From Rhodohalobacter barkolensis (lineage in GTDB: Bacteria; Bacteroidota; Rhodothermia; Balneolales; Balneolaceae), in contig NZ_PISP01000006.1 in the NCBI RefSeq assembly GCF_002834295.1, forward strand, positions 310,001-374,000: DNA of 64,000 nucleotides, written 5' to 3'. Positions 10,631-12,036 of this stretch are shown piece after piece (the stretch's first letter is position 1; each line of letters opens with the position of its first letter). Under the pieces are notes generated by a model that was not told where the DNA came from, made no database searches, and worked only from the letters and a program-made list of their open reading frames with translations. Both the position numbers and the translations under genes were made by a program.

Positions 10631-10664
10631 AAAAGCTGCTCACATCGTGAGTGGCTTTTTTTGT
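10631..10664 (+). terminator. Terminator after tRNA-Asp
   Basis: AAAAGCTGCTCAC pairs with GTGAGTGGCTTTT (two imperfect pairs) across a 3-base loop, followed by a run of T residues directly after the tRNA. Confidence 0.8.
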
Positions 10665-10719: not shown

Positions 10720-12036
10720 TTACTTCAGCCCTAACTTTTGGATCCTTGCCTGAAATTGTTTGATGGCATATTCCAGGAACCACTCTTTCTCTAAACCAAA
10801 AGGGACTTCTTCGTAAGGTTCAAATATTTCGTGAATGATATTTGTGGCGTCATTGAGTAGGGTGGTTAGCTCTTCTTCGGCATAGTGTGTTAACTTGGGA
10901 TTTTCATCAAGTATTCTGTTTATCAGAAATAAACCGTATGCAATGTGACGGGACTCATCCATTTTTAATTTAGTGATACCTTCTCTAAGACCGGGCAAGA
11001 GATCTTCTTTTTCGAGCATATTATAAAAAGCTGCATACCCGGTCTCTGCCAATGTGCCCTCAACAATCATATTATAGGTAATGGATGCTTTTAGTATACT
11101 TTCCGGAGAATTATCAACGTGCAGCTGGGCCATGGCTCGTGGTAATTTTTCGTAGAAGATGACCTTATAAAAGGGTTTATGATATTTTGTCGGATCAGGT
11201 ATCTGATTAAGTACGTTGTTCTTGTAGAGAGAAAAGAATTCAACATGTTTAGCTTCTTCCCATAAAAAAGAGGTCAGATAGATCTCCTCTTCTAACCGTC
11301 CTTCCCTGGCAATAATATTTATTAAGGGAAGTAAGTCTGTAGTAACGGCTTCTTCTCCGGCCATAAAAATTGATATCAAATGATAGATAATCTCCTTTTC
11401 TTCATTGGATAGATTTTTCCAGTGCTCTTTATCAGTAGGCAAATCAATTTCCGATGGATTCCATATCCCAAACTGTTTAGCTTTTTGGAAAAGTTTCATT
11501 GGGAAGGAGTCATGATCCAAACCGGAGGAAGTGGTTTTGTAGTGTGTTTTACTTAAAACCTGCTCAGTTTTATTAACAGGAGAGTGCTCTTTATGCTGAG
11601 TTCCATTTTGAAGTGCAGGTGCGCATTCAATTAAGGTCATCGCAGCTTTTCGCTGAGTGGATAATAAAACCAAGCTTCCTTTTTCTAATTTCACTTTTCC
11701 CATCATGATCTGCTTTGTTGGATCACTTTTTTGTTCAATAAGTTTTATCCATGTTTTTTCTTGAGCTTTTAAAATAATATCTGATATGTCCTCATCTTCT
11801 TTAGTTGCATACCGGATGGATTCACACTTCCCATAATTTAAATCTAAGTAAATCCCTTCAGCCTCAAAATTTTTCAAACGGTCTGGCAGAATGTCAAACT
11901 TTAGAATAACAAACGTATTCCAGTTTTTGCCGTGGTGAGAATAGGTGTCACTCTCATTAAGATTATCTTTCCAATCATTCATCCACTGTTGTGAAAAATA
12001 ACCTGTATCTGTTTGTTTCTTCTTTTTAAACCACAT
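10720..12036 (-). CDS. SCP2 domain fused to R2-like ligand-binding oxidase (R2lox)
   Basis: A ferritin-like di-metal oxidase with an extra N-terminal domain. In the 438-residue product the metal ligands are E228 (AGEEAV), E261/H264 (EEAKH), E326 (VEGTLAE) and E361/H364 (DESRH). V231 and Y321 sit where R2lox proteins form their Val-Tyr ether cross-link. All eight positions are offset by exactly 159 from Geobacillus R2lox numbering as I recall it, so the core has no insertions. Residues ~15-135 resemble an SCP2 sterol/lipid-carrier domain (IKLIEQKSDPTKQIMMGKVKLEKGSL). R2lox proteins bind long-chain fatty acids, so a lipid-oxidising role is plausible; the physiological substrate is unknown. Monocistronic, divergent from mnmG. 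Confidence 0.88.
   Translation of the reverse strand: MWFKKKKQTDTGYFSQQWMNDWKDNLNESDTYSHHGKNWNTFVILKFDILPDRLKNFEAEGIYLDLNYGKCESIRYATKEDEDISDIILKAQEKTWIKLIEQKSDPTKQIMMGKVKLEKGSLVLLSTQRKAAMTLIECAPALQNGTQHKEHSPVNKTEQVLSKTHYKTTSSGLDHDSFPMKLFQKAKQFGIWNPSEIDLPTDKEHWKNLSNEEKEIIYHLISIFMAGEEAVTTDLLPLINIIAREGRLEEEIYLTSFLWEEAKHVEFFSLYKNNVLNQIPDPTKYHKPFYKVIFYEKLPRAMAQLHVDNSPESILKASITYNMIVEGTLAETGYAAFYNMLEKEDLLPGLREGITKLKMDESRHIAYGLFLINRILDENPKLTHYAEEELTTLLNDATNIIHEIFEPYEEVPFGLEKEWFLEYAIKQFQARIQKLGLK

What the first reader, a model, noticed from the sequence alone, without database searches (positions are those of the whole stretch)
10720..12036. SCP2 lipid-carrier domain fused to an R2lox oxidase
All six metal ligands and the Val-Tyr cross-link residues of R2lox are present at a constant offset of 159 residues from the known enzyme. 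Residues 15-135 resemble an SCP2 domain. R2lox binds long-chain fatty acids, so an attached lipid carrier would suggest a substrate-feeding module and gives a handle on the unknown reaction.
Basis: partly seen in the sequence, partly recalled or inferred. Interest (0 to 1): 0.75.

Follow-up and report, generated by a model that had tools for sequence, protein, structure and literature searches.

The report
Lipid-carrier domain fused to R2lox oxidase
This bacterial gene joins a fat-carrying domain to a metal-containing oxygen-using enzyme (R2lox) whose natural job is still uncertain, and in other bacteria the same two parts sit as neighbouring genes beside alcohol- and aldehyde-oxidising enzymes, which suggests that the pair takes up an oily molecule and oxidises it.

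Summary
Confirmed. The minus-strand gene at 10720-12036 (438 aa) is an N-terminal SCP2 domain (residues 13-140, PF02036 above its curated cut-off; modelled fold matches Thermus SCP2 2cx7, Z 18.7), a poorly conserved linker of about 25 residues, and a complete R2lox domain. All six metal ligands, the cross-link Val/Tyr pair, A171 and Y175 sit at +159 relative to GkR2loxI.

The fusion is old and maintained. It occurs through the window's genus, in several families of its class, and in Calditrichota, Gemmatimonadota, Myxococcota and Acidobacteriota. In other Acidobacteriota and in Thermoactinomycetaceae the same SCP2 subfamily is a separate gene just upstream of, or close to, R2lox. In Paludifilum the order is SCP2-alcohol dehydrogenase-R2lox-aldehyde dehydrogenase-ABC1. 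A second, sequence-unrelated SCP2 subfamily lies near R2lox in Rhodococcus, with alcohol and aldehyde dehydrogenases, ferredoxin, reductase and acyl-CoA ligase, and beside R2lox in a mycobacterial plasmid. Linkage therefore probably arose at least twice.

Best reading: SCP2 is a tethered carrier feeding a long hydrophobic substrate to an oxygenating R2lox. Architecture and linkage are shown; feeding, substrate and reaction are inferred. No held paper mentions R2lox together with SCP2. It is a new domain architecture of known families, useful for finding the R2lox substrate.

The parts
10720..12036 (-). Whole gene, 438 aa plus stop: SCP2-R2lox fusion
   Evidence: ORF list and translation; full-length relatives
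12001..12036 (-). Residues 1-12, basic/aromatic N-terminal tail (MWFKKKK...); the MWFxKK start is conserved in the genus, predicted flexible
   Evidence: alignment A1, pLDDT under 50 at residues 1-8
11617..12000 (-). Residues 13-140, SCP2 lipid-carrier domain
   Evidence: PF02036 above gathering score; TT1886/2cx7 relatives; AF2 pLDDT 91.8 and VIA-align Z 18.7, rmsd 2.4, 129 aligned to 2cx7; dN/dS well below 1 in close pairs
11545..11616 (-). Residues 141-164, linker, variable in length and sequence, part of it predicted disordered
   Evidence: residues 145-157 pLDDT under 50; 4-12% identity to nearest relatives; alignment A1
10729..11544 (-). Residues 165-436, R2lox ferritin-like oxidase domain
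   Evidence: NF006202, PDB sequence hits, VIA-align Z 33.1, rmsd 2.2, 253 aligned to MtR2lox 3ee4
11353..11355 (-). E228 = GkR2loxI E69, metal ligand
11344..11346 (-). V231 = GkR2loxI V72, ether cross-link valine
11254..11256 (-). E261 = E102, metal ligand
11245..11247 (-). H264 = H105, metal ligand
11074..11076 (-). Y321 = Y162, ether cross-link tyrosine
11059..11061 (-). E326 = E167, metal ligand
11047..11049 (-). A330 = A171, small residue that opens the ligand channel in R2lox
   Evidence: role from PMC4118035
11035..11037 (-). Y334 = Y175, tyrosine lining the ligand cavity
   Evidence: role from PMC4118035
10954..10956 (-). E361 = E202, metal ligand
10945..10947 (-). H364 = H205, metal ligand

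Best explanation
The protein is a two-part lipid oxidase. The N-terminal SCP2 domain binds a long hydrophobic molecule (most likely an alkyl or acyl chain lipid), takes it from a membrane or droplet, and presents it through a flexible tether to the ligand channel of the R2lox domain. There a Mn/Fe or Fe/Fe cofactor activates O2 and makes a two-electron oxidation, most likely a C-H hydroxylation. In species where the genes are clustered, alcohol and aldehyde dehydrogenases and an acyl-CoA ligase would carry the product on. Shown: both domains, an intact active site, antiquity, selection on the SCP2 part, and recurrent gene linkage to SCP2 in distant lineages, in some of them with ADH and ALDH. 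Inferred: lipid binding, direction of transfer (substrate in rather than product out), identity of the lipid, and the reaction.
For: Domains and active site. Fusion across genus and class: 24 of 28 genus genomes carry R2lox matter and 23 of them show the SCP2 part (in the other, the match stops at a contig end); about 42 fused genes among 245 class genomes against about 16 with R2lox only. Fused in Calditrichota, Gemmatimonadota, Myxococcota and Acidobacteriota. The same subfamily is a separate gene 9-55 bp upstream of R2lox, or overlapping it as called, in Acidobacteriota and Thermoactinomycetaceae, and one gene away in Paludifilum. In 9 of 14 SCP2-R2lox genomes it is the only PF02036 match. 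Paludifilum order SCP2/Zn-ADH/R2lox/ALDH/ABC1. Rhodococcus plasmids: NDMA-ADH, R2lox, FAD reductase, ferredoxin, ALDH, SCP2, fatty acid-CoA ligase, ABC permease and, in R. opacus, MCE protein. A Mycobacterium plasmid has an unrecognised relative of that SCP2 (60% identity) directly after R2lox. These SCP2s do not match the window's subfamily, hence probably independent recruitment. SCP2 domain dN/dS 0.07-0.22 in close pairs. R2lox proteins co-purify with long-chain (hydroxy) fatty acids (PMC4118035, PMC10867098).
Against: In the window organism the gene stands alone between divergent and convergent neighbours, so ADH/ALDH coupling is borrowed from other lineages. Many related R2lox genes have no linked SCP2, and 19 of 29 such genomes had no match to this SCP2 subfamily anywhere, so SCP2 is not essential for R2lox. 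The SCP2 subfamily also occurs without R2lox (Thermus TT1886 shows it as a stand-alone protein). Domain orientation and pocket alignment were not available from the models. Published support for hydroxylation is weak.
Confidence: 0.6

Rival explanations
1. Product acceptor: SCP2 takes the oxidised product from R2lox and delivers it to the next enzyme (alcohol dehydrogenase, acyl-CoA ligase) or back to the membrane, rather than feeding substrate.
For: SCP2 lies among or after product-processing genes in Rhodococcus and Paludifilum. R2lox isolated with bound hydroxy fatty acid suggests slow product release (PMC10867098).
Against: In most fused genomes no downstream enzyme is nearby. A tethered carrier can do both jobs, and the sequence data do not separate them.
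Confidence: 0.15
2. Isoprenoid or quinone-type lipid oxidase: by analogy with UbiJ (an SCP2 accessory of ubiquinone hydroxylases), the R2lox substrate is an isoprenoid lipid, not an alkane or fatty chain.
For: UbiJ SCP2 is among the structural matches (Z 8.4-9.2). An ABC1 (UbiB/COQ8-type) kinase gene follows R2lox in the four Thermoactinomycetaceae loci. UbiJ role from PMC9499169.
Against: Nearest SCP2 structure is the Thermus protein (Z 18.7), not UbiJ. Rhodococcus, Bacillus and Geobacillus R2lox clusters point to alcohol/aldehyde/acyl-CoA chemistry. No relative of that ABC1 gene was found in the other loci fetched.
Confidence: 0.1
3. Lipid as structural cofactor: SCP2 loads the fatty acid that bridges the metals during assembly of the R2lox cofactor and cross-link, and is not involved in turnover.
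For: A fatty acid bridges the two metals in R2lox crystal structures (PMC4118035).
Against: Recombinant R2lox without any SCP2 acquires fatty acid in E. coli and forms its cross-link (PMC4118035; abstract of PMC6399176). Clustering with ADH, ALDH and redox partners suggests catalysis.
Confidence: 0.08
4. Membrane tether or stability domain: SCP2 only localises or stabilises R2lox and carries no ligand.
For: The basic/aromatic MWFKKKK tail could contact membranes (inference from sequence).
Against: SCP2 also occurs as a separate gene next to R2lox, where it cannot tether covalently. The subfamily keeps the SCP2 fold and is under purifying selection.
Confidence: 0.05

Closest known systems
R2lox (GkR2loxI 4hr0, MtR2lox 3ee4, SaR2lox 6qrz/7qbk, SeR2lox 7qbp)
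   Same: Same fold (Z 30-33), six ligands, Val-Tyr pair, A171, Y175; NF006202 above cut-off
   Different: Carries an N-terminal SCP2 domain of about 130 residues plus a linker; the matched R2lox chains are 316-330 residues long and have none
Thermus thermophilus TT1886 / SCP2 (1wfr, 2cx7)
   Same: Same SCP2 subfamily as the N-terminal domain (profile E 3e-43; Z 18.7)
   Different: Stand-alone protein with no assigned role known to me; no attached enzyme
UbiJ (SCP2 accessory of the E. coli ubiquinone metabolon, 6h6n/6h6o/6h6p)
   Same: SCP2 domain proposed to hold a hydrophobic substrate for enzymes acting on it
   Different: Only remote structural similarity (Z 8.4-9.2); separate subunit; isoprenoid substrate
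Alkylsulfatases SdsA1 and Pisa1 (2cfu, 4axh)
   Same: Enzymes acting on alkyl chains that contain a C-terminal SCP2-like domain (structural match); role in chain binding is from memory
   Different: Metallo-beta-lactamase-type hydrolase, C-terminal SCP2-like domain, remote similarity
SCPx and MFE-2 of animals (SCP2 fused to thiolase or to peroxisomal beta-oxidation enzymes)
   Same: Known precedent of an SCP2 domain attached to a lipid-metabolising enzyme (human MFE-2 SCP2 domain 1ikt matches)
   Different: C-terminal SCP2, eukaryotic, different enzymes and chemistry

Membership tests
R2-like ligand-binding oxidase (R2lox) | Score above the curated cut-off of an R2lox family model | tested here: met
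   NF006202 343.7 bits, cut-off 315; NF006200 277.7, cut-off 194
R2-like ligand-binding oxidase (R2lox) | Six metal ligands 4E+2H in R2lox positions | tested here: met
   All at +159
R2-like ligand-binding oxidase (R2lox) | Cross-link Val and Tyr, A171 opening the channel, cavity Y175 | tested here: met
   V231, Y321, A330, Y334
R2-like ligand-binding oxidase (R2lox) | R2lox fold | tested here: met
   Z 33.1, rmsd 2.2, 253 aligned to 3ee4; all R2lox entries shown rank above RNR R2
R2-like ligand-binding oxidase (R2lox) | Mn/Fe cofactor, ether cross-link and bound fatty acid in the protein | not testable with these tools
   Needs purified protein
SCP2 family (PF02036) | Score above Pfam gathering threshold | tested here: met
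   26.6-29.3 bits, threshold 21.3
SCP2 family (PF02036) | SCP2 fold | tested here: met
   Model pLDDT 91.8; 2cx7 Z 18.7 rmsd 2.4 over 129; many other SCP2 entries at Z 8-9
SCP2 family (PF02036) | Lipid binding or transfer | not testable with these tools
   No ligand data for this subfamily found
Ribonucleotide reductase small subunit (NrdB/NrdF) | Score above RNR small-subunit family cut-offs | tested here: not met
   Best 59.6 bits against cut-off 237; only the broad Pfam PF00268 matches
Alkane monooxygenase (function claimed for GkR2loxI) | Hydroxylates alkanes | not testable with these tools
   Claim for GkR2loxI in PMC10867098; not transferable by sequence alone

The most novel reading that the evidence does not exclude
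SCP2 is the dedicated substrate carrier of a large branch of R2lox enzymes, recruited at least twice and fused in several phyla. R2lox is thus a Mn/Fe lipid hydroxylase whose natural substrate can be read directly from the lipid held by its own carrier domain, and the Rhodococcus cluster supplies its missing electron donors (ferredoxin and FAD reductase).
Probability: 0.45. Interest if true: 0.8.

Novelty: new variant of a known kind. Interest (0 to 1): 0.62.

Why it matters
R2lox chemistry is well studied (Mn/Fe assembly, ether cross-link), but its physiological substrate and electron donors are unsettled. A carrier domain naturally tethered to R2lox, plus gene clusters that pair R2lox with an SCP2, alcohol and aldehyde dehydrogenases, ferredoxin and a reductase, give concrete proteins to purify, concrete lipids to look for, and a candidate redox chain to reconstitute. 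Carrier-fed enzymes acting on water-insoluble substrates are also of general interest for biocatalysis.

Tried and rejected
Chance or weak domain match: rejected, since all 20 subfamily members in A2 match PF02036, the profile finds Thermus SCP2 at 3e-43, and the fold matches. Ribonucleotide reductase: rejected. Assembly or frame artefact: rejected, because the fused ORF recurs in dozens of genomes. Differences in R2lox residues between SCP2-linked and unlinked proteins: no decisive channel position stood out, and the comparison is confounded by ancestry. The Diamanti 2022 paper on R2lox ligands is not held, so a mention of SCP2 there cannot be excluded. Paper searches for R2lox with SCP2 or sterol carrier found nothing relevant. 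Conserved operon partners common to all fused loci were sought and none was found. The full-length VIA-align list did not show the SCP2 part because R2lox fills it, so the domain was folded alone.

Full report
WHAT IS THERE. The window gene at 10720-12036 lies on the minus strand and encodes 438 aa. Residues 13-140 are an SCP2 domain: PF02036 26.6 bits for the whole protein, 29 for the isolated N-terminus, gathering score 21.3. A single-sequence search finds the Thermus SCP2 structures 1wfr and 2cx7 at about 1e-11, and a profile of the subfamily finds them at 3e-43 and 1e-42. Residues 165-436 are R2lox: NF006202 343.7 bits against a cut-off of 315, with RNR models far below theirs. All ten diagnostic residues of GkR2loxI (six ligands, V72, Y162, A171, Y175) are at exactly +159. 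In the 86-row alignment of fetched relatives each of those columns departs in at most one row, and wherever the row was listed it was L067, a ribonucleotide-reductase-like outlier.

STRUCTURE. AlphaFold2 with 25 relatives gives pLDDT 86.7 and pTM 0.77, with two ordered parts and residues 145-157 below 50. The R2lox part matches all solved R2lox entries shown at Z about 30-33, and RNR R2 entries only at 24-26. The SCP2 domain folded alone (pLDDT 91.8) matches 2cx7 at Z 18.7, rmsd 2.4 over 129 residues. Other SCP2 proteins match at Z 8-9, including UbiJ, human MFE-2 and mosquito SCP2 with bound C16 fatty acid; SCP2-like domains of alkylsulfatases match at Z about 8-10. The linker between the domains is almost unconserved (4-12% identity to the nearest relatives), while both domains are under purifying selection: dN/dS 0.07-0.22 for SCP2 and 0.03-0.16 for R2lox in the pairs close enough to measure. 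This pattern fits two folded, functional modules on a loose tether. The relative placement of the two domains was not assessed.

DISTRIBUTION. In the window's genus 24 of 28 genomes have a real match. All but one of these show the SCP2 part, the exception being a match at a contig end. In the class, about 42 of 245 genomes hold a gene matching both parts, in several families, and about 16 hold R2lox without SCP2 (my count from the table). Beyond the class, fused genes occur in Calditrichota, Gemmatimonadota, Myxococcota and an acidobacterial lineage.

SPLIT VERSIONS. In Acidobacteriota (L004, L007, L016, L028), an unassigned bacterium (L061) and Thermoactinomycetaceae (L034, L043, L045) the same SCP2 subfamily is a separate gene directly upstream of R2lox, 9-55 bp away or overlapping as called. 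In Paludifilum (L032) one alcohol dehydrogenase gene lies between them. On the R2lox tree, fused, adjacent and unlinked genes cluster (5 label changes against about 30 after shuffling), with fused genes in at least two separated groups. A tree of the short SCP2 domain is poorly resolved and does not show a single origin of linked copies. Of 14 SCP2-R2lox genomes, the linked SCP2 is the only PF02036 match in 9 (the others are one Calditrichota and four Thermoactinomycetaceae with extra copies). In 29 genomes whose R2lox has no linked SCP2, six have a strong unlinked copy of this subfamily, four have only marginal matches, and 19 have none. So the pairing is frequent in this branch but not obligatory.

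GENE CLUSTERS. Paludifilum has SCP2, Zn-alcohol dehydrogenase, R2lox, aldehyde dehydrogenase and an ABC1 kinase in one tight series, with an acyl-CoA dehydrogenase nearby. ABC1 also follows R2lox in the other three Thermoactinomycetaceae. Rhodococcus plasmids carry NDMA-dependent alcohol dehydrogenase, R2lox, an FAD-dependent oxidoreductase, ferredoxin, aldehyde dehydrogenase, an SCP2 protein, a fatty acid-CoA ligase and ABC permease genes, with an MCE protein in R. opacus. The R. opacus SCP2 passes PF02036 (32.2 bits) but has no detectable similarity to the window's SCP2 subfamily. On the Mycobacterium pMyong1 plasmid the 'hypothetical protein' directly after R2lox is 60% identical to that Rhodococcus SCP2, although Pfam alone does not recognise it; an acyl-CoA ligase and an alcohol dehydrogenase follow. 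Two unrelated SCP2 subfamilies near two distant R2lox branches (35-37% identity to the window protein) argue for functional, not accidental, association. Geobacillus pHTA426 and Bacillus R2lox loci also carry alcohol and aldehyde dehydrogenases. The window's own gene is not in such a cluster: it stands between a convergent glutathione-peroxidase-like gene and a divergent mnmG-like gene (names from reading the sequences).

MECHANISM. The best-supported account is a carrier-fed oxidase. SCP2 holds a water-insoluble chain and offers it across the tether to the R2lox ligand channel; the dinuclear site activates O2 and oxidises a C-H bond; the alcohol passes to dehydrogenases where present. The steps after 'two domains joined' are inferred. 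R2lox binds long-chain fatty acids and has a ligand channel open to the surface (PMC4118035). Alkane hydroxylation was reported for GkR2loxI in crude lysate, but replacing two metal ligands reduced activity only by 11-21 percentage points (PMC10867098), so the natural reaction should still be called unsettled.

NOVELTY. Both domain families are known, and SCP2 attached to lipid enzymes is a known theme (animal SCPx and MFE-2; alkylsulfatases). No paper in the held library mentions R2lox with SCP2, but one key R2lox paper is not held, and database domain-architecture listings could not be consulted. I therefore file it as a new variant of a known kind. Correction: my notebook checkpoint says 26/28 genus genomes and 10/14 sole-SCP2 genomes; the right numbers are 24 of 28 and 9 of 14.

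Noticed in passing
L104:6792-14210 (R. opacus pROB01), also L105, L106: R2lox sits with an FAD reductase and a ferredoxin, candidate electron donors for R2lox, together with ADH, ALDH, SCP2 and acyl-CoA ligase.
   Followed up: partly
L103:9182-9592 (Mycobacterium pMyong1): A protein annotated hypothetical, directly after R2lox, is 60% identical to the Rhodococcus SCP2 and is probably an unrecognised SCP2.
   Followed up: yes
L058 (Bacillus sp. EB600) and L060 (Bacillus sp. V3B): Three and two R2lox paralogues lie within about 7 kb and 2 kb, with aldehyde and iron-containing alcohol dehydrogenases nearby.
   Followed up: no
L032, L034, L043, L045: An ABC1/UbiB-type kinase gene follows SCP2-R2lox in all four Thermoactinomycetaceae loci.
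   Followed up: partly
L004, L016, L061: A 5'-nucleotidase-family (PF05761 in L004) gene of about 510 aa follows SCP2-R2lox in these three loci; reason unknown.
   Followed up: no
L083, L084, L085: The same SCP2 subfamily stands alone in genomes of the window's class without a detected R2lox.
   Followed up: partly
L099, L100, L101 (Chloroflexota): Unlinked SCP2 copies lie near genes that look like acyl-CoA or lipid metabolism (carboxylase, 3-hydroxyacyl-CoA dehydrogenase, wax-ester-synthase-like); read by eye only.
   Followed up: no
window 10631-10659: A 13-pair hairpin flanked by A- and T-runs lies between the convergent glutathione-peroxidase-like gene and the fusion gene; it could terminate both.
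   Followed up: no
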